Source: Nesterenkonia pannonica (lineage in GTDB: Bacteria; Actinomycetota; Actinomycetes; Actinomycetales; Micrococcaceae). From it: a DNA stretch of 64,000 nucleotides. Both the position numbers and the translations under genes were made by a program. The stretch is taken from positions 1,612,001 through 1,676,000 of the forward strand of contig NZ_CP080575.1 of NCBI RefSeq assembly GCF_019575955.1, given 5' to 3'. This document shows positions 1 through 62,246 of the stretch, piece after piece; the stretch's first letter is position 1; every line of letters begins with the position of its first letter. The notes beneath the pieces are model-generated. The model did no database searches. It worked only from the letters and a program-made list of their open reading frames with translations, and had not been told where the DNA came from.

Positions 1-556
1 TCTTCTGCGTTGGAGACCGTGGCCGAAAGCGCAGCCACCTGAACCGACTCCGGCAGGTGGATGATCACCTCTTCCCACACGGCGCCGCGGAAGCGGTCAG
101 CCAGGTAGTGCACCTCGTCCATGACGACGTACCGAAGCTGCTCGAGGGTCGATGAGTCCTGGTACAGCATGTTCCTCAGGACTTCGGTGGTCATCACGAC
201 CACGTCCGCTTCGGAGTTCACCGAGGTGTCGCCGGTGAGAAGCCCCACACGCGCGGCGCCGTAGTCCTCAACGAGCTCCTGATACTTCTGGTTGCTCAGC
301 GCTTTGATGGGAGTGGTGTAGAAGGCCTTCTTGCCCTGGGCCAGGGCAAGGTGAACCGCGAACTCCCCGACGATCGTCTTGCTTACTCCCGTGGGCGCGG
401 CGACCAGCACCGCCTTCCGGCTTCCAGTTCACGGCATGCCTGCACCTGAAATTCGTCCAGGTCGAAGGCCTGCGCCGCCCTGAAGGCACCCAACTGTGTC
501 TTGGCCTCCGCGGCGCGACGGCGAGAGGCTGCATAGCGTTCGGCCGGTGAGCTCAT
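1..556 (-). CDS. DEAD/DEAH-box RNA helicase, HelY/Mtr4-like, N-terminal part
   Basis: ATP-dependent superfamily 2 helicase. Only the N-terminal ~185 residues are here because the gene runs off the left edge. Visible in order are an N-terminus SPAERYAASRR, a Q-like segment (LDEFQVQAC), Walker A, TTPIKALSNQKY (motif Ia), TGDTS, MTTEVLRNM, DEVHYL (motif II) and SATVSN (motif III), all typical of the HelY family. Two sequence faults occur. A missing A near 417 shifts the frame just before Walker A. Walker A itself reads PTGVSKT instead of PTGAGKT because 381-386 is GCTTAC where GCCGGC is expected. Start chosen at ATG 554-556, which gives the family's usual N-terminus. The HelY-type assignment is firm; the exact RNA role is not visible. 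Confidence 0.85.
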
Positions 557-595
557 GGCTCACACCCTATCGGCCGGAACTGACCATCCCCTTGT

Positions 596-984
596 CTAGC
601 CCGACTGGACGGGCGCCAAGCTCTCGCTCTCCTCCTCAGTGAAGAGACGGGACCTCACGAGGAAGCGGTGACCGGTGGGACCCTCAATGCTGAACCCTGC
701 TCCCCTGCCCTGCGTGACGTCGATGGTGATGTGGGTGTGGGACCAGTACTCGTACTGCGCTTTGGAGATCCAGACCGGGACGGGCTCGCCCGTTCCCGCA
801 TCCAGCTCCCCAGAAGAACGTCCGCCGGACCCGTGGCGAAGGTTCCCTGGGTGTAGCACATCGGGGCCGAGCCGTCGCAGCAGCCTCCGGACTGATGAAA
901 CATCAGAGGTTGGCCATGGTCCTCGCGCAGCTGCCGCAGGAGCGCAGCAGCCTCTTCGGTGATCGCGACACGTTCGGCACTCAT
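596..984 (-). CDS. DUF779 family protein
   Basis: Small cysteine-rich DUF779 protein, about 129 residues once repaired. The N-terminal frame (MSAERVAITEEAAALLRQL) contains HQSGGCCDGSAPMCY, the conserved cysteine cluster of the family. The C-terminal frame continues VPVWISKAQYEYWSHTHITIDV and GRGAGFSIEGPTGHRFL. One G is missing near 805, in a run that should be five G on the coding strand. The gene lies directly downstream of the aldehyde dehydrogenase, which is the family's usual partner, so the two are probably one operon. Biochemical function is unknown; the cysteines suggest metal or redox chemistry, which is inference. Confidence 0.8.
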
Positions 985-1075
985 AGGGGCCTCCTTCAGA
1001 CTTTGGGACGTCGCTCACTCGGCGGGATGGCCGGTGCGCACCAGCTGCGATGCGCACCGGCCCCTGCCGTCTGGA

Positions 1076-3998: not shown

Positions 3999-4942
3999 TC
4001 AGCCCATCAGAGGATTGCCGATGAAGGGATCAATCCACAGGCCGACGAAGAGGAGGGTGAGATAGAGGATGGACAGGTGGAAGACCTTCATGGCTTCCTT
4101 CTGCTTCAGGCTTCCGAGCTGGGCCTTGCGGTGCAGCACGTGGCACTCCCACACAAACCATGCTCCGGAGATGGCTGCCACCGCCGTGTACGTGATCCCA
4201 GCCCATCCCAGCGGCACGAGCAGGAGCGAGCAGACGACGGTGGCCCAGGCGTACAGCACGACCTGAACCGACACGGTATCTTCCGTGGCGACCGCACCGA
4301 GCATGGGCACGTCGGCCTTCTGATAGTCGGTCCGGTACTTCATGGACAGCGGCCAGTAGTGCGGCGGGGTCCACAGGAAGATGATCACGAAGAGCACCAG
4401 GGCTTACCAGTCCAAGGTTTCGCGCACAGCAGCCCAAGCGATCACCACGGGGAAGCATCCTGCGATGCCGCCCCAGATGATGTTCTGCTCAGTTCTGCGC
4501 TTGAGGACCATGGTGTAGACCACCACGTAGAAGAAGATGGCCGTCGCTCCGAGGAGCGTCGCCAAGGGGTTCGTGCCCACCCAGAGCACAGCCAGTGCGA
4601 GCAGGCCCAGCACCGAAGCGAAGACGAGGGCCTCACGCGGGCTCACCTCTCCGGTGACCAGCGGCCTCTTCTTGGTCCGGTTCATCAGCCGGTCCATGTC
4701 CCGATCCAGATAGCAGTTGAAGGCGCCACTGAGCCTGCCGCCATCGCACCGCCGATCATTGTGGCCACCGCGACCCAAAAGTCGGGGATCCCGCGCTGGG
4801 CGAAGAACATAGTGGGCAGAGTGGTGACGAGCAGAAGCTCGATCACACGAGGCTTCGTCAGTGACCAGTACGCTGCAGCCTTGCGCTTGAGCCCGGTCGA
4901 AGCGGGTGCGTCAGCTGCGGTGCGGGCGGGGGAAGTGGTCAC
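3999..4942 (-). CDS. ctaB: protoheme IX farnesyltransferase
   Basis: Membrane prenyltransferase that converts protoheme to heme O for cytochrome oxidase. The start [21 protein letters not shown] leads into [22 protein letters not shown]. The first aspartate motif is [20 protein letters not shown]. The C-terminal half has [27 protein letters not shown], the second conserved region. Several hydrophobic membrane segments follow. A deletion near 4730 shifts frame. A false TAA stop at 4402-4407 arises where the conserved LDWPALVLF should read TGGCCGGCC but reads TGGTAAGCC. This is one of the clearest GCCGGC-to-GTAAGC changes. It probably encodes one complete ~310-residue protein. Confidence 0.92.
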
Positions 4943-5007: not shown

Positions 5008-7065
5008 TCAGGCGTCGATCCTATCCTTGTCGAGCGCACGCGACCCTTCGATGATGAAGTCCTTGCGCGGAGCGACGACGCTGCCCATCAGCAGGTCGAA
5101 TGCCTTCTCCGCGGCATCGGCATCTTCGACCCGAATGCGTCGCAGGGACCGCCTCTGCGGGTCCATGGTGGTCTCCGCGAGCTGATCGGCGTCCATCTCT
5201 CCGAGTCCCTTGTACCGCTGGATCGGCTCCTTGTAGCGCAGGCCTGACGTTTCCAGCTCGGCCAGCAGCGCGATCAGCTCGGACTCCGAGTATGTGTAGC
5301 GAACATCGTTGGGCCTGCTGCCCGGCTGCACAACCTCCACCCGGTGCAGGGGCGGCACTGCGGCGAAGACCCGGCCTTCTTCGATCATGGGACGCATATA
5401 GCGGAAGAAGAGCGTCAGAAGCAGGGTTCTGATGTGGGCGCCGTCAACGTCAGCGTCGGTCATCAGCACGACTTTGCCGTACCGAACCGCACTGACGTCG
5501 AAGCTGCGCCCCGTGCCGGCGCCGATGACCTGGATCAGCGCCGCGCACTCCTGGTTCGACAGCATGTCGGAGACGGAGGCCTTCTGAACATTGAGAATCT
5601 TGCCGCGGATGGGAAGGAGAGCCTGGTAGTCCGAGGATCGCGCCAGCTTCGCGGTGCCGAGCGCCGAATCGCCCTCGACGATGAAGAGCTCCGAGGACTC
5701 GACCTCCTTGGCCCGGCATTCGACGAGCTTGGTAAGCATGGATGAGTTCTCCAGGGCGTTCTTCCGCCGCTGGGTCTCCTTCAGCTGCCGCGCGGAGATT
5801 CTGGACTTCATCTCAGAGACGATCTTCTCGAGCAGCACAGAGGTCTGCTGCTTGTCAGCCTTCTTCGCGGAGGCCAGCTTCTTCTCGAGCTCACCGGCCA
5901 CAACCTTGGACACGATCTGGCGCGCCGCGGGCGTGCCGAGAATCTCCTTGGTCTGCCCCTCGAACTGCGGCTCAGCGATGCGAACTGTGATCACGGCTGT
6001 CAGGCCTGCGAGCACATCGTCCTTCTCCAGCTTGTCGCTGCCTGCCTTGAGCTTTCGCGCATTTGCCTCGACCGCCTTGCGGAATACTCGAAGCATGGCC
6101 TGCTCGAAGCCGCTGAGATGCGTGCCGCCCTTGGGCGTGGCGATGATGTTGACGAAGCTGCGAACCGTGATGTCGTAGCCGGTCCCCACTGCAGGGCTAT
6201 ATCCACCTCGCAGTCGCGCTGAACCTCCTGCATCTGCCCGTCGACCGGGACAGTTTCGGCAAAGGTGCCGTGCCCCTGTATGCGCCAGGTATCCGTGACC
6301 GGCGCGTCCGGCGTCAGATGCTCGACGAATTCGCTGATGCCTCCGTCGTACTGGAAGACCTGCTCCGCTCGCTCAGCACCGCGGAGGTCCTTGACGACGA
6401 TCTTCAGGCCAGGCACCAGGAACGCCGTCTGCCTGGCGCGAGCGAAGAGCTCCTCGTCATTGAAGGCGGCGTCGGGTGTGAAGATCTGCCGGTCGGCCCA
6501 GTAGCGAACGGTGGTTCCGGTCATGCCGCGCTTGGCCCTGCCGGAGACCTGCAGCGGCGATCCGGCCTGAGCCGCTTCGAAGTGGTCAGTGGGCTTCGAA
6601 CCGTCGAAGGTGCCCGGCTCGCCGCGGCGGAAGGACAGGGCATGAACCTTGCCGCCACGGGTGACGGTGGCGTCGAGACGGGCCGAGAGCGCGTTGACGA
6701 CCGAGGCGCCCACGCCGTGAAGGCCCCTGACTGCGTTGTAGCTTCCGCCTCCGAACTTGCCCCCGGCGTGCAGCTTGGTGAAGACGACCTCGAGTCCCGA
6801 CAGGCCGGTGCGAGGTTCGATGTCGACGGGGATTCCGCGTCCGTCGTCGCTCACCTCCACCGAATCATCCGCATGCAGGGTGACGGTGATGGCCGAGGCG
6901 TAGCTTACCAGCGCCTCGTCGACTGAGTTGTCGATGATCTCCCACAGGCAGTGCATCAGCCCCGGGAGTCGGTCGATCCGACGTACATCCCGGGCGCTTC
7001 CGCACAGCTTCCAGACCCTCGAGAACAGAGAGGTGCCGGGCGCTGTAGTCGTCGCGGGATGCCAT
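5008..7065 (-). CDS. parE: type IIA DNA topoisomerase subunit B (ParE-like)
   Basis: ATPase subunit of topoisomerase IV or a second gyrase. The start MASRDDYSARHLSVLEGLEAVRKRPG and the following MYVGSTDSRGL are standard. Then come EIIDNSVDEAL, DDGRGIPVD, GGGSYNAVRGLHGVGASVVNAL (ATP lid), SSELFIVEGDSALGTAK and LMTDADVDGAHIRTLLLTLFFRYM (TOPRIM), and RYKGLGEMDADQLAETTMDP near the end. Frameshifts fall near 6190 and 6960. Two GCCGGC replacements are visible: ALAGYAS reads ALVSYAS at 6903, and SMPAKLVEC reads SMLTKLVEC at 5732. The order parE, DUF7455, sigA is the usual one in actinobacteria (as around hrdB in Streptomyces), which supports ParE over GyrB. Confidence 0.9.
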
Positions 7066-7400: not shown

Positions 7401-7412
7401 CAGCGCCAAGCT

Positions 7413-7453: not shown

Positions 7454-7463
7454 CTGAGAATCC

Positions 7464-9084: not shown

Positions 9085-10325
9085 TCACGCGGGCCCATGG
9101 GGAAACGCCGAAAACCCCGAGAATCTGTCGACCAGCTCCGCCATGGTGCAGTCGGAGCTGTCCCCGAATTCCCTGCGGATCAGGTCCACAGCTTCGCTCG
9201 ATACGGAGCTTCTGCCCTTCACCCACTCAATCCATGCTTTCAGAGTCAAGGCGGCCTCACGCTCTTCGGCCTCCGCATAGGGCAGCAGCTCTTTCAGCAG
9301 AGCCTCAAGAACTTCGATTCCCCTCCAGTCGGGACGGGATCCCGTTGCGCCGAGCCAGCAGTTTGCGTAGTCCTGCAGAAGGCGGTCCAACGCCTGCGCG
9401 TCCAACCCCTGGGGCAGTCTCGGGGCGAGTCTGCCCCAGAGTTCACCGTCTTCGAGACGCGCGGCCCCCGGGTCCCTGCGCAGCTCCTCGTGAAAGAGCG
9501 TTCCTGCAACGGCCGCCGGGTACCCCACAGAGGCCAGCGGAACGAGAGCATCTCGGACTCTCTTTCGGGCCAGCGTGCGCAGCATCGACGCGGCTGCCTC
9601 CTCCGCTGTGTGCAGCCACATCGAGGGCTCAGAGCCTCGGCCGCGTGAGAGAGCCTCGCCCCACAGCGTGAGCTCGTCCTCCACGCTCTCGGACGCGGCA
9701 GCGGTCTTCACCATCCTGCGCACCACACGCTGCGACGCCTCCGATGGAGCATGCACAGGGGTTAGGAACTCGTCCAGCAGGTCCGCCGGACCGGCCGCAG
9801 CACCTGCCCGGACGGTCAGCTGGGGAAGACGCTCGAGCGAGGAATCGAGCTCCGCGGAGATGCTGAAGCCCGGATACGGACAGCACGTCTCGTCGCGGCA
9901 GGTGTAGTTCCGCACAGCGTCGCCTCCGGCATGCCACACGTGAAGAAGCTCGACGCCGTACTCGGAGTCGAGGCAGCCCGCCAGCGTGTGGACGAGACCG
10001 TCATACAGCTGGCTGTGGAGCGGCGACGGCGCATGCTGTGTGAAGAGGAGAGCTATGGCCGTCTCGGGCGAAGGCTGCGAGTGTGGTAAGCGAGCCATTC
10101 GGCGCACTGACGGGCCATTGCATAGGGATCCGCCGCACCTCCGGCGAGGTCTACGCGGAGGTGCCCGCCGCTCGAGCCTCCCGCGAGTCCGATCAGGACC
10201 AACGACTCCTGCGGCATGTACCCGAAGGTGTGCTGCACGAGGGCCAGGGCGTCGCCCGGACGGTCGAGATGAGCGGAAGGCAACTTCTCCTGGGGCTGGG
10301 AGCGCGGGGCGTTCTCTGCTGTCAT
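9085..10325 (-). CDS. DUF4192 domain-containing protein
   Basis: Actinobacterial DUF4192 protein, about 413 residues. The N-terminus MTAENAPRSQPQEKLPSAHLDRPGDALALVQHTFGYMPQESLVLIGL is the family signature, followed by GHLRVDL and CAEWLA. Frame is lost near 10080, where WLAGHTRS reads WLAYHTRS through GTAAGC at 10086. The remainder (ETAIALLFTQHAPSPLHSQLYDGLVHTL, YCRDETCCPYPG-like cysteines, then an alpha-helical C-terminal half) is continuous to 9085. Function unknown. The gene lies between sigA and the PAC2 gene on the same strand, a frequent neighbourhood in Micrococcales. Confidence 0.8.
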
Positions 10326-10437
10326 GGAGCAAGCGTGTCGTCGATCGCGGACAGGCGTCTGCGCCCCGGGCCGGGCTGAAGGAGTAAGCGCGGCTCTAGG
10401 CGCCTTCCTGCCCCGTGGAAAGTCGTCGCAGCGACAG

Positions 10438-11574
10438 TCAGTCGCGAGGGCCCTCGTCTTCGTCTGAGCCGTGCTGGGAGTCATTGCCCAAGGTTTCGTC
10501 GATGTCGCCCTCTGGCCCCTGAAGATACTGTCGCCCGGCTGAGAGCGCAGGTACTGCTCAACGGCAGCCCCAGCTCCTCGGCATCCGGCACCGCATCGTC
10601 ACTGTGCACCAGCAGAGAGCGCTGCTGCTTGGTCGCGTACTGGTCGAAGTTCTGCTCGAGCTGCTCCACCACCTGCGCAACCTGAGGATTCTGCTGGACC
10701 TGGCGCGTAATGTCCGATTCGACCGCGCGAGCAGCCTCACGCAGATCATCAGTCGGAAGCATCAGCGCGCTCGCGGCGCCGACGTACTCCAGCGCGGCCA
10801 CTGCCACTTGGGGTACTTGCCCGACGCCAAATAGTGGGGCACGTGAACGGTGTACCCGACCACGTCATGGTAAGCGGCATCGAACCGGTGCTCCAGCATC
10901 TGAGAAAGGCCCGCCTCGACTTGGGCATTGGGCGACCACGTCGAGATGCCGCTCACCAGGTCCTCGCGATTGCCGTGGGCCGTCACTCCCAATGGACGAG
11001 TGTGCGGAGCAGGCAGCCCCAGCGCATCGGCGAAGACTGTCAGGCTCACCCCGAGATGGTTCGCCAGCTCGAGCAGCGTCTCCGCCACCTTCTCCCAGTG
11101 AAAGTCAGGCTCATCCCCGGTCAGAAGCAGGAAGTTTCGCCCCAGGGCGTCCTGCAGCTCGTACAGATCCAGCCGCGGCCCCTGGAATTCTGAGAAGCGG
11201 CTGTCGGTGAAGAGCATCCGCGGTCGACGGGACCGATAGTCGAACAGGGCGTCCACATCAAAGCTGGCCATCTGCCGGTGCGGCAGCGCAGACAGCAGCG
11301 AGTCGGCCATCTGCTCGGAGAGCTGGTAAGCGTCGGTGTGTCCCGCCACAGACACCAGCATGCTCAGGCCTTCGGCACTGCTGGGACCGTCCTGCCCGGG
11401 CTCGTTGGAGCGCATGACGAGTTCTCCCGCCTGACCGCCGTCCTCATCGGGGTGCGCCTCGTCCTGAGGCTCGGCGTGCAGGTGCAGGAGGCTGAAGCGG
11501 TCTCCATCGACACCTGACTGGCCGGGATCGAACTGATCGTTGGGGCCCACACTGCTCCTTCGCCGGGTAGCCAT
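10438..11574 (-). CDS. PAC2 family protein (proteasome assembly chaperone-like)
   Basis: Member of the bacterial PAC2 family, related in fold to archaeal/eukaryotic proteasome assembly chaperones. Repaired length about 378 residues. After an acidic N-terminus come LVSVAGHTDAYQLSEQMADSLL (family form GHVDAGQL), VDALFDYRSRRPRMLFTD, LLLTGDEPDFHWE, AETLLELANHLGVSLTVFADALGLPAPHTRPLGVTAHG and DVVGYTVHVPHYLASGKYP. The AG pairs at 11326 and 10870 read AY through GCTTAC on the coding strand. Frameshifts near 10800, 10575 and 10520 break the C-terminal part. With these repaired, an acidic tail ends DEDEGPRD at 10438. A proteasome role in this organism is inference. Confidence 0.75.
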
Positions 11575-46092: not shown

Positions 46093-46350
46093 TCAGTGTT
46101 CGTTGGGCAGGACGACACGGTCCAGGGTGTAAGGCGTGCCAGAGAGCGCCTCGCCCATGATTGCCTCCATCACCGGCGTGGGAGACAGGCAGTCGGCGCA
46201 GGCCTCGGGCCCTGCCTCGATCTCCACCGTCACCTTCTCCTCCTCGTTGAGGGACCATTTCAGGTGGTAGTCGTCCTTCTCCATGGTCTCGCGGAAGTTG
46301 GCAAGCGCCTGATCGACCGACGAGGAGTAAGCAGCGTTCTGGTCGTTCAT
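46093..46350 (-). CDS. small CxxC protein of unknown function
   Basis: An 85-residue acidic protein, first gene of the minus arm. MNDQNAAYSSSVDQALANFRETM is followed by KWSLNEEEKVTVEIEAGPEACADCLSPTPVMEAIMGEAL. The CADC pair in an otherwise cysteine-free protein suggests a metal or redox site. NAAGSS is likely behind NAAYSS, through GTAAGC at 46327. Frame is intact. I do not recognise the family. Confidence 0.55.
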   Translation of the reverse strand: MNDQNAAYSSSVDQALANFRETMEKDDYHLKWSLNEEEKVTVEIEAGPEACADCLSPTPVMEAIMGEALSGTPYTLDRVVLPNEH

Positions 46351-46631
46351 AGTGGTGCTCCGATTCTGAGTTCCGCGGTGACGTTCACCGCGCGCCGCGC
46401 ACGAGCGGCACTTCGAATATGGCCCTCCACGTGACGGATGGGAAAGGACTTCCCGTGTGCTGGAAGGGGACTTTTCCGATCGAGCCAGGCGCTCACCGGA
46501 GCCCGGGTCGTTTCACCCTTCCACCCTGAGGAAGTGACGTGCACCACATTTCGACTTGTGAGCATCATGGACTACCAGGACATCTCCTCACCGGGGCTGC
46601 CCAGAGCGAAAATGATGACCGAAGGGGGCTC
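46351..46631. promoter_or_regulatory. divergent promoter region of the catabolic island
   Basis: A 281-bp gap separates the minus arm (small CxxC protein first) and the plus arm (alcohol dehydrogenase first), so both promoters should lie here. I see no perfect CRP-type palindrome and no confident -35/-10 pair. A GAAGGGGG ribosome site precedes the plus start at 46632. No regulator gene sits next to it. Confidence 0.5.
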
Positions 46632-47787: not shown

Positions 47788-47831
47788 TCAGCACCTCTCC
47801 TCATGAACAGAATTGACGAAGGACACGCATT

Positions 47832-52120: not shown

Positions 52121-52134
52121 TCGGGAGAGCACTG

Positions 52135-53132
52135 ATGATCGTTGACGCACATGCCCACTATCTGCCCAAGGACTACCCGGCAGACGCACCCGCCTGCTTT
52201 CCCGCCATGGAAGCCGTGCCCGACAGCACTGATCGGCAGCTGATCTTCGGACAGATGAGGTTCCGGGCGAAGGACGTCTTCTTCGAAGCAGAGAAGCGCC
52301 TGGAGGCTCAGGACGCTTCCGGGGTGGACGTCGAGGTGATCAGCCCCATGCCTCCCCTGCTGCGCTATGACCTTCCGTCACCGGACGGACTGGCGCTTGC
52401 CCGTCACACCAATGAGTTCACCGTCGAGCTGACCTCGCATTCGCCGCAGCGACTCATCGGTCTCGGCATGGTCCCCATGCAGGATCCAGAGGCAGCCACG
52501 ACGGAGCTGAAGCACATCAAGGAGATGGGCCTCGCCGGGGTGGAGATCGCCTCCAATGTGCTGGGCAGCTCCATCGGCGACGAAAAGTTCCTGGAGTTCT
52601 TCAAGGAGCTGGAGCGCTTGGATCTGGCCCTCTTCGTCCACGCTATGCCCTCCCCAATGACCGACTCCCGATGTCTGCCATGGGCACCTACGTAGTCGGC
52701 ATCGAGGGCATGTATGCGGCCGCGTCGCTGATCCTCGGCGGCACAGCAGCTGCCTGTCCGAACCTGCGCGTCTCCTTCAGCCACGCCGCCGCATGGCTTC
52801 CCCATGATGCTTCCCGCGCCAACTATTTCTGGGGCGGCTCATGGAATGAGGAGCCGAAGAACCTGGAGCGTGCGGTAATGCCGGATGATGGACCTTCGCC
52901 TCTGGAATACGCCAGGCGCTTCTACTACGACTCGATGGTCTTCGACCGCCGGACCATCCGGTACCTCATCGACCTCCTCGGCTCGGACCGTCTCATGGTC
53001 GGCTCAGACTTCCCGGCCATGCTGCGCGAGGAGCTTACCGCGAAGACGCTGAAGTCCATGGATCTGCCTGCCGCCGAGTGGGAGAACATCAGCCATCACA
53101 ATGCCTACCGATGGCTGGGCCTGTCAGCCTGA
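52135..53132 (+). CDS. amidohydrolase-2 family metal-dependent hydrolase/decarboxylase
   Basis: TIM-barrel amidohydrolase, about 333 residues. MIVDAHAHYLPKDYP has the HxH metal motif. EKRLEAQDASGVDVEVISPMPPLLRY, LARHTNEFTVELTSHSPQRLIGLGMVPMQDPEAATTEL, MGLAGVEIASNVLG and ALFVHAMP (metal His) follow. After a lost base near 52668 come VSFSHAAAWLP, FDRRTIRYLIDLLGSDRLMVGSDFPAM (Asp) and ISHHNAYRWLGL. The pattern matches the ACMSD-like group, whose members decarboxylate or hydrolyse ring-derived acids. Substrate unknown. Last gene before a terminator. Confidence 0.85.
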
Positions 53133-53143
53133 CGCCGATCGTC

Positions 53144-53179
53144 GACCCGTGCCCGCAGAAAGCTCTGCAGGCACGGGTC
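53144..53179 (+). terminator. hairpin terminator after amidohydrolase
   Basis: 16-nt arms (53144-53159 and 53164-53179) pair with one mismatch around a 4-nt loop, 12 bp after the amidohydrolase stop. It separates the dehydrogenase operon from the ABC importer. Confidence 0.75.
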
Positions 53180-53239
53180 ATGTGCGTTCGTGGGCGTCCT
53201 CCCGGACTCCCGTATTGCACTTCCTCCCGACGGAAGGAA

Positions 53240-53255
53240 TGTGATTCGGCTCACA
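53240..53255. promoter_or_regulatory. CRP/GlxR-type operator upstream of ABC importer
   Basis: TGTGATTCGGCTCACA is a perfect TGTGA-N6-TCACA site, 89 bp before the start of the solute-binding protein gene. Its half-sites equal those at 2624-2639, but the spacer differs. Catabolite-type control of the importer is the natural inference. Confidence 0.7.
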
Positions 53256-53344
53256 CACATCCGTCAGGCTTTGAAGACCGGAGGAACATACTCCGGTGGA
53301 TGCTCGGGAAGTACTCCGCACTATCGTTCTAAGGGGAACTTGTC

Positions 53345-55154
53345 ATGAGGGACACAGACTCGTCAGCACGTCAGCCCGCCTACCTGCGGCTCCTCACGGT
53401 CGCCGCAGTGGGAGCCCTAGCGCTCGTCTCGTGCGGCGACGACGGGGGCGGCGCCGCTGGCGGGGACGGCAACGGCGACGGCAGCGCCAACGGCAATGGA
53501 GAAGAAGCTTACGAACCGCAGCAGGGCGGGGAGCTCACCGCGATTCTGGACGCAGCCTTCGCCGGAGACTGGTCCACGGGCCTCGACCCCGCCAGGAGCA
53601 ACAGTGTAGGCGCCAACCTGGGCCAGAACGCGGCAATCTTCGGCGGGCTCTTCCTTCTGGAGCCCGAAGAGAACGGGGAGGGCGCAGAGCTTGTGCCGAA
53701 CCAGGCCGAAAGCGCGGAGTGGTCGGAGGACGAGCTCACACTGTCTGTCACCCTCCGCGAGGGGATTGAGTTCTCGGACGGCACGCCGATGGACGCCGAC
53801 GCCGTCGTGTGGAACTGGATTCGAGCGATCAGCTGGGGCAGCACTGCCACCGTGAACGTGGACTTCGACTTGGAGCGGGAAGCACCCGAACTGGACGACG
53901 AATGGTTGGACAGCCTCTTCGACGCCCTTCCCGATGACGTGGACGAAGATCTCATCATGTCTCGGCTGGGCGCCATTCAGGCGGTCGATGACAGGACTGT
54001 GGAGATTCACCTGTCGAACCCCAACGCCGCGCTGCTCAATGGCTTCCCAGGAACGAACCTGAACTATGTCGGCTCACCCACAGCCTACGCAGAATCGGGC
54101 GGGGAAGAGTTCAGCAGGTCACCCGTGGGGGCAGGCCCCTTCATCGTCACGAGCAACCAGCAGAATGAGCGGCTGGAGATGGAGCGCAACGACAACTACT
54201 ACCAGGACGATCTCCCTACCTTGACGCGCTGAACTTCCAGTCCGTCGGCGGTGACCAGGTCGCGTACCAAACGATCCAAGCTGGTCAGGGAGACGTTGTT
54301 GAAGGTCTGAGCGACGTGAACCTCATCGACGAAGCTGAACAGAACCCAGATCTGAGCGTCCACCTTGGTGCTCCCACCTCCCCGTATGTGGTTCAGCTGA
54401 ACACCCGCACCGAGCCCTTCGACGATGAACGCGCTCGCGAGGCCATCTACTACGCCACCGACTTTGAGGCCATCAATGAGGGGCTCTTCAACGGCGAGGG
54501 TGACATGAGCGAGTCCTTCACCGCCTCCGGCGGGCTGTTCCACCACGCAGAAGTGCCCGGCTACCGCGAACACGACGTCGAGCGGGCCGCCGAGCTGGTG
54601 GAGGAGATCGGCGGCCTGGAAGTGGAGCTGAGCACCACCGATCTCTCCACAGCACGGCAGGTCACCACAGCGCTGCAGACACAGTGGCAGGAAGCAGGCA
54701 TCGATGTGACCATCAACTCCGCTGGTTTGGGGGACATCATCACCAACTTCGTCGGCGGGGAGTGGGAATCCGTCCTCCAAACCGCCGCGCGTGGGACCCT
54801 GCCGCCGGCATCGGCGTGAACGTCCGCTTCGGCTCGACCTCCCCATACAGCGGCACGCCGCTGCCTGAGGGCGCTGAGACCATGGAAGAAGCACAGGCGG
54901 AAGGCTTGGAGACCGAGCTTGATGAGCTGCTCAATGAGGCGGCCTCCACGACTGACGAAGATGAGCGTCAGGAGCTCTATGAGGAGATCTCCGAGTACAT
55001 CTCAGAAGAGGCCTACGCACCCTTCGGCCCCGCCTTCAGCCCCGCCCAGGTAGTTCGCGATGGCGTCTATGGTCCGGGGCTGACTGAACCCATCCCCGCC
55101 CTCGCGGTGAACCAGCAGGTCCTCTACGACCGCGTCTGGATAGAGCAAGAATGA
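53345..55154 (+). CDS. ABC transporter substrate-binding lipoprotein (peptide/opine/nickel class)
   Basis: Extracytoplasmic solute receptor of about 603 residues. The signal peptide ends in the lipobox LALVSC near residue 34. A Gly/Asn/Asp-rich linker follows. The mature part has GGELTAILDAAFAGDWSTGLDPARSN, GGLFLLEPEENGEGAELVPNQAESAEWSEDELTLSVTLREGIEFSDGTPMDADAVVWNWIRA, AIQAVDDRTVEIHLSNPNAALL and PVGAGPFIV, the SBP_bac_5 pattern. An acidic C-terminus ends AVNQQVLYDRVWIEQE. Frameshifts near 54222 and 54790. GTP-start region has RBS AAGGGGA. The ligand cannot be read from sequence; the operon context suggests the same compound the dehydrogenases consume. Confidence 0.88.
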
Positions 55155-56186
55155 CCTCGAAAGCCGACACGCAGGTCACCAGCCCTCGGTCCAAGAAGCA
55201 CAGCAGCTTCTTGGGCCGGGCGGCTTACTCCCCGCTCCTGAGGCTCATCGGCCGCAGGGTCCTGCTGGCCGTACCGCTTCTCCTGGCAGTGAGCATTCTC
55301 GTCTTCATCCTGCTCGAAGCCATGCCGGGGATCCCGCCCGGAATGAGGCCTGCATGGACGCCACGGAGGAGCAGGTCCAGGCGGTGCGCGAGCGCATGGG
55401 GCTCGACTGTCCGGCTCCCGAACGCTACATCACCTGGCTGTTCGGGTTTCTCCGAGGTGACCTCGGCGTCTCATCCGTGAACGGCCGACCGGTCGCCGAG
55501 CTGCTCTCCGAGCGACTTCCCGTGACGCTTGAACTGGTCGGGCTGGCGTTCGTGCTCTCGGTGGCGCTGGCTCTGCCGGTCGCTCTTCTTGCGGCACGTA
55601 AGCCCGGAGGAATCGTCGACCGGCTCATCATGGTGCTCTCCATGACTCTCCTCGCCATACCCAACTTCGTGATGGCTCTGCTTCTTGTTCTGGTCTTCGC
55701 AGTGACCCTGCAGATGCTGCTTACCATCGGCTATGTTCCTGTCCAGGTCAGCCTGATCGACAATCTGCGCTCCGTCACCCTGCCGGTGCTGGCTCTCGCC
55801 ATCCCGATGGCATGCTTCTACGCTCGCTTCCTTCGAGGTGATCTGGGCGAGCAGCTGCTCGGAGCCACTACATCGATACAGCTCGCGCCAAAGGCGCAGG
55901 CATCTGGCGGATTCTCTGGCTCCATGCATTCAGGAACTCCAGCTTCGGGCTGCTCACACTCGTGGGACTGAACATCGGAGCACTCATCGGCGGAACGGTC
56001 ATCATTGAGCAGATCTTCGCCATGCCCGGCATGGGAATGCTGATGCTGCAAGGCGTGATCAGCCTGGATCTTGCGGTCGTGCAGAGCTGCGTGTTCATCT
56101 TCGCGGCCGTCGCAATATTCGCCAACCTCTTCGTCGACATCATGTATGCCGTTCTCGACCCTAGGATTCGATATGGCAGTCACTAG
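55151..56186 (+). CDS. ABC transporter permease (DppB type)
   Basis: Integral membrane subunit. LRLIGRRVLLAVPLLLAVSILVFILLEAMPG is the first span. RMGLDCPAPERYITWLFGFLRGDLGVS, PVTLELVGLAFVLSVALALPVALLAARKPGG, PNFVMALLLVLVFAV and GYVPVQ are followed by the EAA-like region and GGTVIIEQIFAMPGMGMLMLQGVISLDLAVVQ. LPAIGYVP reads LLTIGYVP through GCTTAC at 55729. Frameshifts near 55343, 55865 and 55950. It overlaps the binding-protein gene by 4 bp (ATGA). Confidence 0.9.
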
Positions 56187-57065
56187 TGCACCAACCAGGC
56201 CCGAACTCGGAGCCGCCGCCCCTGCTCCGACCTCACCGCGAGCTAGGCTGTTCGCTGGTCCACGTTCAGGCGCCGCATGATCACTTGATTTCGGGCAGCA
56301 CCGTCGTACTGCTGATCCTGCTCTGCTTCGTGGGGCCGTACGTCCTGCCGCTGCACTCCCGGTCGGGGGCAGCGTGCTGGACAGCGCACTGCCCCCGGGT
56401 CCCCGGCCACCCTCTGGGCACCGACGTCAACGGCAACGATGTCCTGTCGCGGCTCATCCACGGCGGCCAGGCCTCTCTCACCGTCGGCATCGGCGTCAAC
56501 GTCATAGGCTTGGTGGTCGGCGGATCGGTCGGAGCGATCTCGGGCTATCTCGGAGGAAAATCCGACACCGCGATCATGAGAGTCCTGGATGTTCTTATCG
56601 CGTTCCCTCACTGGTCCTCGTGATCGTGTTGGCCCAGGTCTTGGGGCCGAGCCTGCCGAACACCATCATTGCCCTGACAGCATTCAGCATTCCCGCCGTG
56701 GCGCGCATCGCACGCTCATCGACGATGAAAGTCATGAGCATGCCGTATCTGCAAGCGGCTCAATTGGCAGGCAGCCCGTGGTGGCGCATTCTCTTCCGCC
56801 ACATCGTTCCCAATATTGTGCCGCAACTGACGAATTTCCTGATGCTTGGCATGGCGATAGTGATCGTCACGGAGGGTGCACTGTCCTTCTTAGGCCTGGG
56901 CATCCCGCACCCAACCCCAGTTGGGGAAACATGGTCTATGAGGCCCAACAGTCAATGTCCGCCACCCCGCAGCTTGTGCTGTGGCCTGCCCTGGCACTCT
57001 TGGTGACCGTGCTGTCGTTCAACCTCTTGGGCGAGAGCATTCGAGATGAGGTGAACACACGATGA
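56173..57065 (+). CDS. ABC transporter permease (DppC type)
   Basis: Second membrane subunit, about 297 residues. After a short N-terminus and a break near 56280 come TLISGSTVVLLILLCFVGPYVLPLHS, HPLGTDVNGNDVLSRLIHGGQASLTVGIGVNVIGLVVGGSVGAISGYLGG and VLDVLIAFP. The EAA loop is AVARIARSSTMKVMSMPYLQAAQLAGSPWWRILFRHIVPNIVP. SFLGLGIPHPTPSWGNM and LLGESIRDEVNTR follow. Frameshifts near 56350, 56610 and 56920. Overlaps both neighbours. Confidence 0.9.
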
Positions 57066-58214
57066 GCTCACTGCAGGCAGAGAGGAGCCACGTGGATCAG
57101 AACGAGCCAGGACCAGATATCGCGCCAGTGCTGACGGTTGAGAACCTCCGAGTGGTGTTCGCCAAACACGGTCGCGAGGTCCAAGCAGTCAATGGCCTGA
57201 ACTATCAGCTGTCCCCGGCCGGACTTTGGCCATCATCGGCGAATCCGGCTCCGGCAAGTCGGTCGGAGTGCGGGCCCTGATGGGGCTCCTGCCGCCGAGT
57301 GCGAAAGTGACCGGATCGGTCCGGCTCAACGGGCGGGAGCTCGTCGGTCTCAGCGAGAAGGCTCTGATGAGCGTCCGCGGCAGAGAGATCGCCATGATCT
57401 TCCAAGACCCGGCGGCATCCTCAACCCGACGATGAATGTGGGAAGCCAGATTATGGAGGCAATACGGCTCCATAGCCCGATGAAGAAGCACGCCGCCGAA
57501 GCGAAGGCCATCGAGCTTCTCAAGCTGGTGCGTCTGCCCTCGCCGGAAACGCGGATCAGTCAGTATCCCCACCAGCTCTCCGGGGCATGCGGCAGCGCAT
57601 CGTCATCGCGATAGCGTTGGCCTCGGACCCCAAAGTTCTCATCGCCGACGAAGCCACGACAGCATTGGACGTCACCACCCAGGCTCAGATCATGGAGCTG
57701 CTCGTGGACATTCAGGAGCGGCTGGGAACTGCGGTCATCATGATCAGCCACGACATCGGCCTGGCTGCGAACTATGCGCACGATGTGATGGTGATGTACG
57801 CAGGCAAGGTCGTCGAGCACGCGAACACCAAATCCCTGTTCAGCAACGTGCAGATGCCCTACACCAAGGCACTCCTGGGGGCCGTTCCGCAGCTCACCAC
57901 AGTCCCGCATTCCAAACTCACGGTCATCGGAGGACACCCCGGACCTGAGCAGCCTGCCGCAGGGGTGCCCCTTTGCTCCACGCTGCCCCCGCGCCACGGA
58001 CGTGTGCACGGAGGAGGAACCGCCATTGGCGCAGCAGAACGACCAGCACAGCTACGCGTGCTGGCATCCCGTCGGCGGTCAGCGGCTGGAGACTGCGGGA
58101 ACCGCAGAGCTTCTCACGGCAGATGCGCAGGAAGGCGCCCGTCCAGAGGACCCAGCATCGACAGAAGGACGCGATGGATTCGCGTCATCACTAGATGAAA
58201 GAGCCAAACGATGA
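57062..58214 (+). CDS. ABC transporter ATPase (DppD type)
   Basis: First nucleotide-binding subunit, about 384 residues. LTVENLRVVFAKHGREVQAVNGLNYQL leads to Walker A IIGESGSGKSVGVRALMGLLP. MIFQDPA is the Q-loop. After a break near 57585, GMRQRIVIAIALASDPKVLIADEATTALDVTTQAQIMELL covers signature and Walker B, and VIMISHDIGLAANYAHDVMVMYAGKVVE the H-loop. The C-terminus has the oligopeptide-type cysteine cluster (CPFAPRCPRATDVCTEE). Frameshifts near 57215, 57415 and 57945. Ends overlapping the next gene as ATGA. Confidence 0.9.
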
Positions 58215-59313
58215 CCGGCAGATCAGCGAACATCGGCACTGTGCCCTCCGCATCCACGCGGGAAGTGCCAGATTCCGCCGCGCACAGTGGGGCGGCTTCG
58301 GAGCAGGAGCCGCTGCTCGTGGTCAAAGATTTGGTCCAGGAATACGCCACCCGCGGGCCGGGAGGCGTGAAGACCGGAACAGTGCATGCGCTATCCGGCG
58401 TCTCGTTCGAGCTGTACCCGGGCGAAGCTCTGGGCATCGTCGGTGAGACGGGCTCCGGAAAATCGACATTGGCCCGCGCCGTGATCAACGTGGAGGAGCC
58501 AGTTTCGGGGACCGTCGAGTTTCGCGGCAGACGCATGAGCGGCATGTCCCGAAAGGACCTTCGGGCCGTGCGCGCCGAAATGCAGATGGTGTATCAGGAC
58601 CCCTTCGGCTCGCTGAACCCCGCTGGCGCGTGTCTGATGTCATCTCCGAACCCATGCTGGGGCATACCAATATGTCCAAGCAGCAGCGTCGGGAGCGCGT
58701 CGAGAAGCTCCTGGAGATCGTCGGCCTCGACCCCAGCATCTACTGCAATCGCCGACCCATAGAGCTTTCCGGCGGGCAGGCCCAGCGCGTAGCCATCGCC
58801 CGCGCTGTCGCGCTCGAGCTAAGCTCTCATCATCTGCGATGAGGCCATCTCCTCCTTGGACGTGCTCATTCAAGCCCAAGTGCTCAACCTCTTCGAGGAG
58901 CTGCGCCAGGACATTGGCCTGGCCTACCTCTTCATCGCTCACGACCTGGCCACGGTCAAGCAGATCAGTGATTCAGTTGCAGTGATGCACCTCGGCCAAC
59001 TGGCAGAGATCGGACCGGCCGAGACCATCTATGACGCTCCCCGGCACCCCTACACCCGCGCCCTGCTGGATTCGATTCCGATACTGAACGTCGAGACCGG
59101 AGAGGCCAAACGGCCCGTCCCGCTGAAGGGCGATCCGCCGTCCCCGCTGGACCCCCGTCCGGCTGTCGCTTCCGCACGCGCTGCCCTTTGGCGCAGGATA
59201 TCTGCGCCGAGGTTGAACCGATCCCCAGCGACGTGGACGACGGCAGCCGCAGACCGCACAAAGTCGCGTGCCACTTCCCGCTGGAGCCTGGCCAGATGCT
59301 GCCGAACCGGTAA
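58211..59313 (+). CDS. ABC transporter ATPase (DppF type)
   Basis: Second nucleotide-binding subunit, about 367 residues. [35 protein letters not shown] has Walker [15 protein letters not shown] the Q-loop. After a lost base near 58625, [20 protein letters not shown] precedes [25 protein letters not shown] and [37 protein letters not shown] at 58818-58824 has replaced GCCGGC in ALEPALIICDE, adding one base. The C-terminal cysteine cluster is broken near 59155; the repaired end is EPGQMLPNR. Confidence 0.9.
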
Positions 59314-59353
59314 CCCGGTAAGCGGCGGCCGCGGCATCGGTGTAGCCGCCCCG

Positions 59354-59407
59354 CAGACGCAGAGGAGGGGCTGGAGATGATCATCTCCAGCCCCTCCTCT
59401 GCGTCTG
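59354..59407. terminator. 54-bp perfect palindrome, bidirectional terminator
   Basis: Two 27-bp arms (59354-59380 and 59381-59407) are perfect reverse complements with no intervening base. It lies between the convergent ends of the ABC ATPase gene and mftB. As RNA it would form a very strong hairpin from either strand. A cloning or duplication artefact is possible but unnecessary. Confidence 0.8.
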
Positions 59408-59412
59408 TTCGT

Positions 59413-59689
59413 CTAGGCTTCTTGGGCGACCACCATGTTCGAGTCCACCAAAGAGCTCACGGCCCTGATGTAGACGTCCTGAGACGGTTCCGCTACGCCG
59501 CATGGCGACGATTGCCGCACGAGCACTGGGCTGGTCGCGCAGGGACTCGACGATCTGCACCAAGGTGCGGTCCTTGAGAAAGGACAGCTTGCGGGTTCCA
59601 AAGTGGTACAGCAGGGCGCCGAACGGCTCAGGCCGCACCGACACCTGTGAACTCAGCTTCCACGCCGATTCTGGGTCAAACACTGTCAC
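59413..59689 (-). CDS. mftB: mycofactocin biosynthesis chaperone MftB
   Basis: RiPP recognition element (PqqD-like) that binds the MftA leader and presents it to the radical SAM enzyme MftC. GTG start 6 bp after the mftA stop. TVFDPESAWKLSSQVSVRPEPFGALLYHFGTRKLSFLKDRTLVQIVESL is the strongly conserved MftB signature. After a lost base near 59495 the C-terminus DVYIRAVSSLVDSNMVVAQEA completes a protein of about 92 residues, normal for MftB. The usual next gene mftC does not follow; a terminator does. Confidence 0.9.
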
Positions 59690-59695
59690 GGAGAC

Positions 59696-59809
59696 TCAGT
59701 ACACGCCGCACATGCCGTCGATGGAGACTTCCTCGATCAACGAATCCGCCTCCACTGTGCTCTCTGTGTCCTCTGCGTCCGTTCGGTCGGGCTCGATGTG
59801 GTCGTTCAT
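59696..59809 (-). CDS. mftA: mycofactocin precursor peptide MftA
   Basis: A 37-residue precursor peptide. It starts ATG at 59809 behind an AAAGGA ribosome site. The leader is acidic (MNDHIEPDRTDAEDTES). The C-terminus is IDGMCGVY, the canonical mycofactocin core; the terminal Val-Tyr pair is decarboxylated and cyclised by MftC and released by MftE to become the redox cofactor. The frame is undamaged. mftB follows with a 6-bp gap. Very short frames like this are easily missed by automatic calling. Confidence 0.96.
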   Translation of the reverse strand: MNDHIEPDRTDAEDTESTVEADSLIEEVSIDGMCGVY

Positions 59810-59986
59810 GGGACAGTCCTTTCGATTGAGCCGTCAGGAAATTCGAGACAGCGGATTCAGAACGTGATATGCATCATAGTATTGGCACAGAGTGTCGATG
59901 AGAAGAGATGGAGGGAAAACCCCCTCCGACTACTGTCAGGCGGAAGAGTGATGTGGAACTTGAGCGAGTCGTGCTGAGGTGAAGGT
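59810..59986. promoter_or_regulatory. divergent mftA/mftR promoter region
   Basis: 177 bp between divergent mftA and mftR. On the minus strand a TATGAT hexamer (59874-59879) is a good -10 for mftA. TGATATGCATCA at 59868-59879 overlaps it and has short dyad symmetry, so it may be part of an MftR operator. A small hairpin, GGAGGG/CCCTCC, lies around 59909-59926. MftR would be expected to repress from here; binding is not shown by sequence. Confidence 0.45.
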
Positions 59987-60604
59987 GTGATGCAGGCTGT
60001 TGCAGCAGCGCCAGGCAAGAGCCCTCCCAGGCGGGTGGGCAGAGCGCGACTGACCACTGCTGACAGCCTGGGCCGCACTGGTCTGGATCTCTTCATCAAG
60101 TATGGATTCGACCATGTCACGGTCGAAGACATCGCGGAAGCCGAAGGCATTGGCCGTCGCACCTTTTTCCGATACTTCTCTTCTAAGAATGACTTGCCAT
60201 GGGGCGATTTCGACGGTCTCCTGCTCCGGATGCGTTCCCGGCTGGCTCAAGCACCCGCAGAGACCCCGCTCTTCGACGCACTGCGGGAATCGGTCGTCGA
60301 CTTCAACCGCTTTCCGCACGATGAAGTCCCTTTTCTGCGTCAACGCATGACGGTCCTCCTGACCACCCCGACCCTGGTGGCCCATTCTGCCCTCCGGTAC
60401 CAGGCCTGGAGGAGGGTGGTGGCAGAGTTCGTGGCAGAGCGTCTCGGCGTGGCGCGGGACTCCCATATGGCGATCACCCTGGGCCAGGTCTGTCTGGGCA
60501 TCAGCCTGTCGGCCTACGAGGAGTGGCTGGTCGATGATTCACTCGTGCTGGCTGACTTGATCAGCGGCGGTTTTCACGACGTCCGCGCAGTGTTCGCTTA
60601 CTGA
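59987..60604 (+). CDS. mftR: mycofactocin system TetR-family regulator MftR
   Basis: TetR repressor of 205 residues. LTTADSLGRTGLDLFIKYGFDHVTVEDIAEAEGIGRRTFFRYFSSKNDLPWGDFDGLLLRMRSRLA is the DNA-binding domain, and the FFRYFxSKNDLPWGDFD string is diagnostic for MftR. The ligand domain follows (YQAWRRVVAEFVAERLGV, GQVCLGISLSAYEEWL). Divergent from mftA and 4 bp before mftG. The last codons read VFAY, probably VFAG before GCTTAC at 60596. In mycobacteria MftR responds to acyl-CoA; the same here is inference. Confidence 0.92.
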   Translation: MMQAVAAAPGKSPPRRVGRARLTTADSLGRTGLDLFIKYGFDHVTVEDIAEAEGIGRRTFFRYFSSKNDLPWGDFDGLLLRMRSRLAQAPAETPLFDALRESVVDFNRFPHDEVPFLRQRMTVLLTTPTLVAHSALRYQAWRRVVAEFVAERLGVARDSHMAITLGQVCLGISLSAYEEWLVDDSLVLADLISGGFHDVRAVFAY

Positions 60605-60608
60605 CGAC

Positions 60609-62246
60609 ATGACCAAGCACTACGACGTCGTGGTGGTAGGCGGCGGAGCCTCCGGCTGCGCCCTTGCGGCCCGACTCAGCGAGAACCCAGACATGTCTGT
60701 TCTGCTCATCGAAGCTGGGCCAGTCCCCGGAGCGGGCGAGACGCACACCGGAGACTCGCAGCTTACGAGCTCCCTGCAGTCAGTTTACTCAGGCCACGAC
60801 CTGAACTGGGACTACCCCAGTTCCCTGTTCGAGGGGCGGAGTGGAAGGTGGCCCGCGGCAGGGCCTTGGGCGGGTCGATGGCCATCAATGGGGTACTTCG
60901 TAAGGGCCCACCCGGGAGACTTCGCCGAATGGGCGGCCGCCTCCGGAGACGACCCGCGCCACTCGTCATGGTCGTACCCCAACGCCCTCCCGATTCTCCG
61001 AGCACTCGAGACGGACCTGGACTATCCGGATTCGACGCTGCATGGCAGAACGGGGCCCATGAAGATTGCTCGCGTGTGGACACAGTCTCCGCGCGAGGGT
61101 GCATCAGGACCATTGGACGACTCTTTTCTCGCCGCAGCGCTCAGCGGCGGTGCCGTGTGGGAAGCAGACAAGAACGCCGGTGGCATACCCGGTATAGGTC
61201 CTGTGCCGATGAACTCGATCGGCGGTGTCCGACTGCATCCCGGGATGCAGTACGCGGCACCGGCTAGGAGCGGCCCAACCTGGAGGTCCGGGGAGCTCTC
61301 GCGCGCTCAGACTGCGCTTTCATGGACGGCGAGTCGTCGGAGTTGACGTCAGTGCTGCTGCCCATGGAGGCATTGCCGCTTAGCGTGGAGAGCATCGACT
61401 GCGGAGAAGTGGTGCTCACCGCAGGGGCTATCGCAACACCGCAGCTGCTCCTTCTGTCCGGGATCGGGTAGGCCGAACAGCTGCACCGTCACGGAGTGAG
61501 CGTGCGTGCAGAGCTCCCCGGCGTGGGCCAGGGAGTGAGCGAGCATCCGGACGTCGGCCTGCCCCTGGTGGTGCGCCCGGGGTTGAGCAGACCGACGCCG
61601 CAACCGCCTTCACGCTCTCCTGGAACTTTTCAGCCGGAACTCGGCCAGACGGTGCGCCGGGGGCGGACCGCGGCAGACCTCTGAGCCCCGATCAGCAGAA
61701 CGAGGTGATATCGAGCTGCTCCTGACGTCGGTGCCCCACAGCCGCCTCTTCGGAATTGAAACTGACCTCGCACGGCGAACCTACTCGCTGCTGGTCGGCC
61801 TCCAGCGCCCCGAATCCCGAGGTCTGATTTCGCTCCGTTCGAACAGTCCGTTCAGTCCGCCGAACATCGACTACCGCTTCCTGACTGCCGGGGAGGACCT
61901 GAGAGGCTCCGCGTCGGCATGCGGACCGCGGTGGATGTGCTGGACGCGGAACCTGTGCGCGCACTTCTTGCGGATTCAGCCGGAGAGCGCCTGGGGCGGT
62001 GATGGACGACAAGGCGACGTGGCAGAGGCGGCTGCGCGCACATATCGGTCTCCGCTTCCACACGTGCGGCAGCGCGAGGATGGGACCGGCGTCCCGCGCC
62101 GACTCTGTGACGGACTCCGCAGGAGTGGTGCACGGCGTGGAAGGTCTGCGAGTGGCGGACCTGTCTCTGCTGCCCTCAGCTCCTCGCGGGGACCGGCGAA
62201 CACTGCAGTGTTCATCGGAGAGATGATCGCGCGCGCCATGGCGTAG
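60609..62246 (+). CDS. mftG: mycofactocin system GMC-family oxidoreductase MftG
   Basis: FAD-dependent GMC oxidoreductase, about 545 residues. YDVVVVGGGASGCALAARLSENPDMSVLLIEAG is the FAD motif. RGRALGGS precedes the GMC signature, and PGDFAEWAAASGDD follows. VVLTAGAIATPQLLLLSGIG is the second signature. It is interrupted by TAG at 61468-61473, where GGGCCGGCC would give GIGPAEQL. The C-terminal catalytic region is HTCGSARMG and VVHGVEGLRVADLSLLP, then NTAVFIGEMIARAMA. In the mft locus this enzyme reoxidises mycofactocinol and passes electrons toward the respiratory chain (family knowledge). Many frameshifts (near 60840, 61265, 61360, 61700, 62185). Confidence 0.85.

What the first reader, a model, noticed from the sequence alone, without database searches (positions are those of the whole stretch)
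381..61473. GCCGGC is systematically replaced by GTAAGC/GCTTAC across the window
About 45 sites carry GTAAGC or GCTTAC (or a near variant), against 5 intact GCCGGC sites I could find. Some GTAAGC hexamers are expected by chance, but in many conserved genes the restored codons give the family residues: helicase Walker A GAGKT (381), CtaB DWPAL (4402), ParE SMPAKL (5732) and LAGYA (6903), PAC2 DAGQL (11326), PepA LKPANAM (12538), Lpd NLAGNG (14456), E2 PVAGT (14905), S4 AAGAH (20926), AlaRS VAGMVPF (21287) and QAGS (22980), YebC RGAG (33768), globin LEPAKH (39114), alcohol dehydrogenase QAGKL (47661). Mutation cannot explain identical changes in essential motifs and false stops. The simplest explanation is a base-modified GCCGGC motif miscalled in reads from native DNA, so the artefact would reveal a methyltransferase or another DNA modification in this organism.
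Basis: partly seen in the sequence, partly recalled or inferred. Interest (0 to 1): 0.88.

Follow-up and report, generated by a model that had tools for sequence, protein, structure and literature searches.

The report
Methylated GCCGGC miscalled as GTAAGC
In this long-read bacterial genome the DNA word GCCGGC has very often been written down wrongly as GTAAGC, almost certainly because the bacterium methylates that word, so a sequencing error betrays the target of its own restriction-modification system.

Summary
The window has 6 GCCGGC (expected 42-70), 21 GTAAGC and 18 GCTTAC. Of 18 such sites alignable to Nesterenkonia relatives, 16 have GCCGGC in at least one relative; one has GTAAGC. In a 464-kb sample of the genome GCCGGC is the most significantly depleted hexamer and GTAAGC/GCTTAC the most significantly enriched. 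A strand rule marks read-level error: intact GCCGGC falls from 0.32 to 0.09 to 0.007 of expectation as zero, one or two strands carry a 5' purine, and scars lie on the purine strand, 120 to 25. Compressed G/C runs and broken frames suggest an unpolished nanopore-type assembly. The predicted enzyme exists 1.44 Mb away: a NaeI endonuclease homologue, an m5C methyltransferase and a Vsr. The methyltransferase's kin stand beside NaeI homologues and NgoMIV-family enzymes, both families cutting GCCGGC. The sequence change is an artefact; the methylation behind it is inferred, not measured. The kind of effect is known; this motif and scar were not found in the papers searched.

The parts
   Evidence: GCCGGC in 1 of 2 aligned relatives; frame
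4402..4407 (-). scar GCTTAC
   Evidence: GCCGGC in 5 of 7
6903..6908 (-). scar GCTTAC, LAGYA
   Evidence: GCCGGC in 6 of 7
10870..10875 (+). scar GTAAGC
   Evidence: GCCGGC in 3 of 13
11326..11331 (+). scar GTAAGC, DAGQL
   Evidence: GCCGGC in 3 of 12
   Evidence: GCCGGC in 6 of 21
13618..13624 (+). insertion-type scar GCTAAGC
   Evidence: aligned to GCCGGC in 10 of 21
   Evidence: GCCGGC in 11 of 21
14905..14910 (+). scar GTAAGC
16493..16498 (-). scar GCTTAC
   Evidence: GCCGGC in 10 of 22
17757..17762 (+). GTAAGC, probably genuine, not a scar
   Evidence: 0 of 22 GCCGGC, 1 of 22 GTAAGC
   Evidence: GCCGGC in 10 of 23
21976..21983 (.). possible insertion-type scar GCTTAAGC
   Evidence: aligned to GCCGG-type sequence two bases shorter; GCCGGC in 2 of 23
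   Evidence: GCCGGC in 10 of 23
28547..28552 (-). scar GCTTAC
   Evidence: GCCGGC in 2 of 19
   Evidence: GCCGGC in 1 of 7, gapped alignment
34062..34067 (+). GTAAGC, status unclear, perhaps genuine
   Evidence: 0 of 2 GCCGGC
   Evidence: GCCGGC in 3 of 7
10086..10389 (+). GTAAGC at 10086 and 10384, no alignment
   Evidence: not among the aligned sites
16611..16633 (-). GCTTAC at 16611 and 16628, no alignment
   Evidence: not among the aligned sites
24930..24935 (-). GCTTAC, no alignment
30661..30666 (+). GTAAGC, no alignment
40101..42417 (+). GTAAGC at 40101 and 42412, no alignment
45899..48450 (.). GTAAGC at 46327, 46980, 47661 and GCTTAC at 45899, 48445, no alignment
53033..60766 (.). GTAAGC at 55598, 59318 and GCTTAC at 53033, 53507, 55223, 55719, 60596, 60761, no alignment
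5515..5520 (.). intact GCCGGC; others at 31538, 36597, 36741, 37928, 54804

Best explanation
The organism (a Nesterenkonia) carries a NaeI-type restriction-modification system whose m5C methyltransferase methylates GCCGGC on both strands. The assembly was made from native long reads, most likely nanopore, with no correction by unmodified or short-read data. The basecaller reads the methylated word, on whichever strand passes the pore and above all after a 5' purine, as GTAAGC; the consensus keeps one strand's wrong call, giving GTAAGC or its complement GCTTAC, and sometimes an insertion form (GCTAAGC, perhaps GCTTAAGC). The real chromosome has GCCGGC at most of the scar places. Shown: GCCGGC at the same places in relatives, genome-wide depletion and excess, the strand and context rule, compressed runs, and the presence of the system. 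Inferred: that the methyltransferase is active, that it marks GCCGGC, and the platform.
For: Orthologues: GCCGGC in at least one relative at 16 of 18 alignable sites; at 15 positions where GCCGGC is the relatives' commonest form, 5 are scars and none is intact. Among 288 window positions where at least one relative has GCCGGC, this genome has 4 intact plus 16 scars, 6.9% together, within the range of five control palindromes (3.7-10.4% intact); without the scars only 1.4%. Strand rule: intact GCCGGC 64, 29 and 1 against 202, 311 and 150 expected for zero, one or two purine-led strands; in mixed contexts scars on the purine strand 120, on the pyrimidine strand 25 (baselines 9.4 and 7.7). Word orientation varies by region (chi2 47.8, 20 df, p 0.0004, some cells small; relatives p 0.53). 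Runs of six G or C 0.6 against 14.7 per 100 kb, and open frames of 400 codons or more cover 19% against 65%. System: PF00145 at G000:C1:174687-175564, PF09126 in four pieces at 175748-176548, Vsr next to it; NaeI crystal sequence 1EV7/1IAW E 1.7e-19 and 3.8e-12; methyltransferase kin of 50% identity or more in 10 of 16 other NaeI loci; about 60% identical kin on plasmids (4765 records match at any level, 10 listed, 3 opened), and both opened records that bear annotation have an NgoMIV-family enzyme next to it. No PF01555 methyltransferase was found in this genome.
Against: No raw reads: methylation, modified base and platform are not measured. Methyltransferase and endonuclease are both frame-broken in the assembly, which I read as further sequencing error; real inactivation is not excluded by sequence alone. 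Recognised scars (about 189 GTAAGC, 33 GCTAAGC and, with weak support, 30 GCTTAAGC above baseline) make up about 220-250 of roughly 570 GCCGGC missing from the 464-kb sample, so over half of the deficit is other miscalls, real avoidance or drift. In the alignment-based scan of 1365 hexamer classes GCCGGC ranks first for loss, but only narrowly (score -3.06, next -2.91). A second m5C methyltransferase lies in a prophage-like stretch, specificity unknown. The 14 other NaeI carriers looked at show no comparable depletion; how they were sequenced is not known to me. That NaeI cuts GCCGGC is recalled; the one passage that I saw prints another string for it, apparently a misprint.
Confidence: 0.9

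Rival explanations
1. Real avoidance: the NaeI system has selected GCCGGC away over evolutionary time and GTAAGC is ordinary sequence.
For: The system is present; 9 of 14 other NaeI carriers have a GCCGGC/CGGCCG ratio of 0.68-0.84, so mild avoidance may exist and may explain part of the deficit.
Against: Own ratio 0.25 lies far below all 14 carriers (0.68-1.50) and below the 14 same-order genomes (0.50-1.42), which also shows that low ratios are not peculiar to carriers. Avoidance should give single, mostly synonymous changes, not the same three-base change, with in-frame stops at 12538 and 39104, nor scars placed by the 5' base of one strand.
Confidence: 0.03
2. Miscalled modified GCCGGC, but written by another enzyme (the prophage m5C methyltransferase, or a modification system not searched for) and not by the NaeI-linked one.
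For: A second PF00145 gene lies at about G000:C1:1,760,700-1,761,700 in prophage-like DNA. Only PF00145 and PF01555 were searched in the whole genome; phosphorothioation and other methyltransferase families were not, and frame breaks could hide a gene.
Against: The NaeI-linked enzyme is the one whose neighbours and kin point to this exact word.
Confidence: 0.05
3. A motif-specific basecaller fault on unmodified DNA.
For: The assembly is generally poor.
Against: GCCGGC is by far the most significantly depleted hexamer (score -28, 0.15 of expectation; the next by score, CACCGG, -14 and 0.53; TCCCCC, 0.2, is a compressed run), and a matching system is present. A fault on unmodified GCCGGC would hit every high-GC genome read the same way; I could not test that.
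Confidence: 0.02

Closest known systems
Modification-mediated errors in nanopore genomes (Chiou et al. 2023, PMC10687267, passages seen)
   Same: Motif-centred systematic errors in native-DNA assemblies, linked to lineage-specific modification; removed there by whole-genome amplification.
   Different: There GCAGC and GCTGG in Listeria; here GCCGGC with a three-base GTAAGC scar, a strand and context rule, and a NaeI-type system in the genome.
NaeI restriction-modification system (PF09126 endonuclease, PDB 1EV7/1IAW)
   Same: Endonuclease homologue and adjacent m5C methyltransferase.
   Different: Both genes are frame-broken in this assembly; a Vsr gene stands beside them, and a Vsr homologue also lies in 5 of 16 other NaeI loci.
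NgoMIV-type restriction-modification systems (G|CCGGC, PMC4081073 passage)
   Same: Their methyltransferase is about 60% identical to this one.
   Different: Different endonuclease family.
m5C-GCCGGC methylome of Aeromonas hydrophila NEB724 (PMC8565308, passage seen)
   Same: Same methylated word.
   Different: Measured there by RIMS-seq; here inferred from assembly errors.

Membership tests
NaeI-type restriction-modification system | NaeI-family endonuclease | tested here: met
   PF09126 E 2e-27 and 7e-21, four pieces, 1EV7 E 1.7e-19 and 3.8e-12
NaeI-type restriction-modification system | adjacent m5C methyltransferase of the kind found with NaeI elsewhere | tested here: met
   PF00145 E 1e-53; kin at 50% identity or more in 10 of 16 other NaeI loci
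NaeI-type restriction-modification system | intact reading frames | tested here: not met
   methyltransferase in two pieces, endonuclease in four with two TGA; the whole assembly is frame-broken, so I file it as a homologous locus with activity inferred
NaeI-type restriction-modification system | methylates and cuts GCCGGC | not testable with these tools
   needs digestion or signal data
Modification-mediated nanopore error | errors concentrated on one methylation motif | tested here: met
   only narrowly first in the alignment scan
Modification-mediated nanopore error | strand- and context-dependence of the error | tested here: met
Modification-mediated nanopore error | nanopore platform | tested here: inconclusive
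   homopolymer compression and frame breaks fit; no record of the method
Modification-mediated nanopore error | error vanishes in amplified DNA | not testable with these tools
   no reads
Restriction-site avoidance as the whole cause | depletion to this degree in other carriers | tested here: not met
   14 carriers 0.68-1.50 against 0.25

The most novel reading that the evidence does not exclude
Archived unpolished long-read assemblies hold a readable record of methylation: multi-base scars of one motif, with a strand and 5'-base rule, let the target of a restriction-modification system be read from finished sequence alone, without signal. The severity of this scar further suggests a mark that the basecaller was not trained on, for instance the outer, non-CpG cytosine of GCCGGC or a modification other than plain CpG 5mC.
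Probability: 0.35. Interest if true: 0.5.

Novelty: new member of a known kind. Interest (0 to 1): 0.4.

Why it matters
Genes of this public genome carry false stops, false residues and frame breaks, so its protein predictions and its 62% completeness should be used with care. It also shows that a hexamer count against relatives can expose a likely methylation target and lead straight to a candidate enzyme, which could be tried on other archived assemblies.

Tried and rejected
A wider scar set with GTAGGC/GCCTAC was dropped: it is enriched 1.7-fold, but at the three window copies with alignment relatives carry the same or nearly the same word and none has GCCGGC. GCTTAAGC as a scar has weak support: 32 against 3 in the samples, but of three window copies one aligns over a shorter GCCGG-type word, one does not and one has no alignment. 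A second modified motif (CACCG words, ACCGGT, depleted to 0.4-0.5) was considered; the aligned words in this genome are scattered ordinary changes, so I read it as lineage codon usage. A survey of AGTAAGCG in 396 genomes of the order, own included: own 160 in 2.70 Mb, the highest ratio to its reversed control (2.6), but two 1.5-Mb genomes are as dense or denser (G410 114, G310 92; sizes rounded). Pieces of G410 (5.6 kb) and of the similar G291 (20 kb) have 54% and 50% GC, so I read that density as composition; G310 and G270 could not be judged. No second scarred genome was identified. The run test of scar orientation in the window alone was not significant (p 0.17); only the 21-locus test was. 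The weak NaeI match of G317 (below cut-off) was left out of the carrier ratios. Literature: no paper with all of nanopore, methylation, basecalling error and GCCGGC; related searches searches were seen as listings; six papers were seen as passages, none in full.
Full report
WHAT WAS CLAIMED.

THE COUNTS. The window (64.3% GC) has 6 GCCGGC, 21 GTAAGC and 18 GCTTAC. It lies at 1,612,001-1,676,000 of a single 2.70-Mb contig with an estimated completeness of 62%. Over the contig there are 686 GCCGGC against 2715 of the mirror word CGGCCG; in 23 same-genus genomes the ratio is 1.10-1.46, in 14 same-order genomes 0.50-1.42, here 0.25. GTAAGC occurs 506 times forward and 732 times reverse, the highest of the 38 genomes both in number and in ratio to its control (1.19; next 1.05; same genus at most 0.60). 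In a sample of the genome (window plus 20 stretches, 464 kb) GCCGGC is the hexamer most significantly depleted against Nesterenkonia loci (0.15 of expectation), and GTAAGC/GCTTAC the one most significantly enriched (6.1-fold, where CTTAAG has a higher ratio on small counts; 6.5-fold on the larger set). AGTAAGCG occurs 37 times against none in 843 kb of relatives.

THE ORTHOLOGUES. The nearest named genomes are Nesterenkonia. After fetching flanking stretches of seven of these genomes, 18 of the 39 window sites could be aligned: 16 of 18 have GCCGGC in at least one relative, 12 of 18 as the commonest form, and one of 18 has GTAAGC in a relative. In reverse, 288 window positions have GCCGGC in at least one relative; here 4 are intact and 16 are scars. 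The sum, 6.9%, lies within what five control palindromes show as intact (10 of 269, 13 of 195, 14 of 147, 24 of 230, 9 of 96), so at conserved places the scars account for about what is missing. At 15 positions where GCCGGC is the relatives' commonest form, 5 are scars and none is intact. A scan of 1365 hexamer classes by alignment puts GCCGGC first for loss, but only narrowly (-3.06 against -2.91). At 16 sites read in the frame of a relative's longest ORF, two become TAA (12538, 39104); a few of those ORFs are probably shadow frames.

THE STRAND RULE. GCCGGC is palindromic, so each strand has its own 5' neighbour. Intact sites are 64 of 202 expected where neither strand has a 5' purine, 29 of 311 where one has and 1 of 150 where both have. 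Where only one strand has the purine, the scar reads GTAAGC on that strand 120 times and on the other 25 times (baselines 9.4 and 7.7). Four control palindromes show no such fall towards zero (ratios 0.45-1.86; CGGCCG runs the other way; same call). Orientation also varies by region (chi2 47.8, 20 degrees of freedom, p 0.0004, some cells small), while the few such words in relatives do not (p 0.53); within the window alone the run test is not significant (p 0.17). This is how errors in single-strand reads would pass into a consensus; selection or mutation would not be expected to do it.

THE ASSEMBLY. Runs of six G or C are 0.6 per 100 kb against 14.7 in relatives, and open frames of 400 codons or more cover 19% against 65%: an uncorrected long-read assembly, most likely nanopore. 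The platform is inferred.

THE ENZYME. At about G000:C1:174,672-177,083 (locus L093 9672-12083) stand an m5C methyltransferase (PF00145, E 1e-53), a NaeI endonuclease homologue on the other strand (PF09126, E 2e-27 and 7e-21; the solved NaeI 1EV7/1IAW, E 1.7e-19 and 3.8e-12) and a Vsr mismatch endonuclease (TIGR00632, E 1e-35). NaeI homologues are uncommon: 16 of 396 genomes of the order (15 over the cut-off) and 2 of 30 of the genus, own included in both; the other Nesterenkonia has a broken remnant (G001). A methyltransferase of 50% identity or more lies in 10 of 16 other NaeI loci; in the rest it is more distant, absent or beyond the piece held. Of its plasmid relatives (4765 records at any level; the ten listed are about 60% identical) I opened three: one bore no annotation, and in the other two an NgoMIV-family endonuclease is the next gene. 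NgoMIV cuts G|CCGGC (PMC4081073, passage); that NaeI cuts GCC|GGC is recalled. Two endonuclease families with the same target thus share this methyltransferase family. No PF01555 methyltransferase was found; phosphorothioation and other families were not searched. A second m5C methyltransferase of unknown target lies in a prophage-like stretch.

MECHANISM. Shown: scars replace GCCGGC, with strand and context rules, in an assembly with long-read defects and a genome with a GCCGGC-type system. Inferred: the methyltransferase is active, and the methyl group shifts the signal so that the caller writes GTAAGC. That the error covers positions 2 to 4 and is this severe may mean that the mark is on a cytosine outside the CpG; this is a guess.

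WHAT REMAINS. Recognised scars make up about 220-250 of about 570 GCCGGC missing from the sample. The rest may be other miscalls, drift, or real avoidance; 9 of 14 other NaeI carriers have ratios of 0.68-0.84, but so low or lower ratios also occur in genomes where no NaeI was listed (G031 0.80, G036 0.71, G037 0.50).

VERDICT. Observation confirmed; interpretation supported. Modification-caused errors are known (PMC10687267, passages), and so are methylated GCCGGC (PMC8565308, passage) and NaeI-type systems. What is new is this member, its scar and its strand rule; one search found no paper holding all four of its terms, within an open-access library only.

Noticed in passing
G000:C1:1751001-1771000 (L094 about 6300-13800): Prophage-like stretch with an m5C methyltransferase piece (L094 9674-10591, reverse) beside what look like single-strand binding and recombination genes (named from the translations by recall); one TAA inside the methyltransferase match.
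   Followed up: partly
L133, L134 (G001:C7 about 29,600-30,200): Another Nesterenkonia keeps a broken remnant of the same NaeI, Vsr and methyltransferase cluster, with no GCCGGC depletion (ratio 1.41).
   Followed up: partly
window and the 464-kb sample: Runs of five or more G or C are shortened (six: 0.6 against 14.7 per 100 kb) and long reading frames are rare.
   Followed up: yes
464-kb sample against relatives: CACCG-containing words and ACCGGT are depleted to 0.4-0.5; read as codon usage, but a second weak motif effect is not excluded.
   Followed up: partly
L080 (WNZI01000002.1): A record titled Vibrio cholerae strain 35D encodes an S4 protein 75% identical to the Nesterenkonia one, like the Arthrobacter records around it in the list: probably a mislabelled or mixed record.
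   Followed up: no
L155 (NZ_CP119142.1): A 2.17-Mb record titled plasmid of Neisseria gonorrhoeae in the plasmid collection has the size of a chromosome.
   Followed up: no
whole contig G000:C1: Scar words are unevenly oriented: 506 GTAAGC against 732 GCTTAC, with stretches almost all of one kind (L107 0 to 11, L109 0 to 9, L096 8 to 1), perhaps following the strand of the reads that formed the draft.
   Followed up: partly
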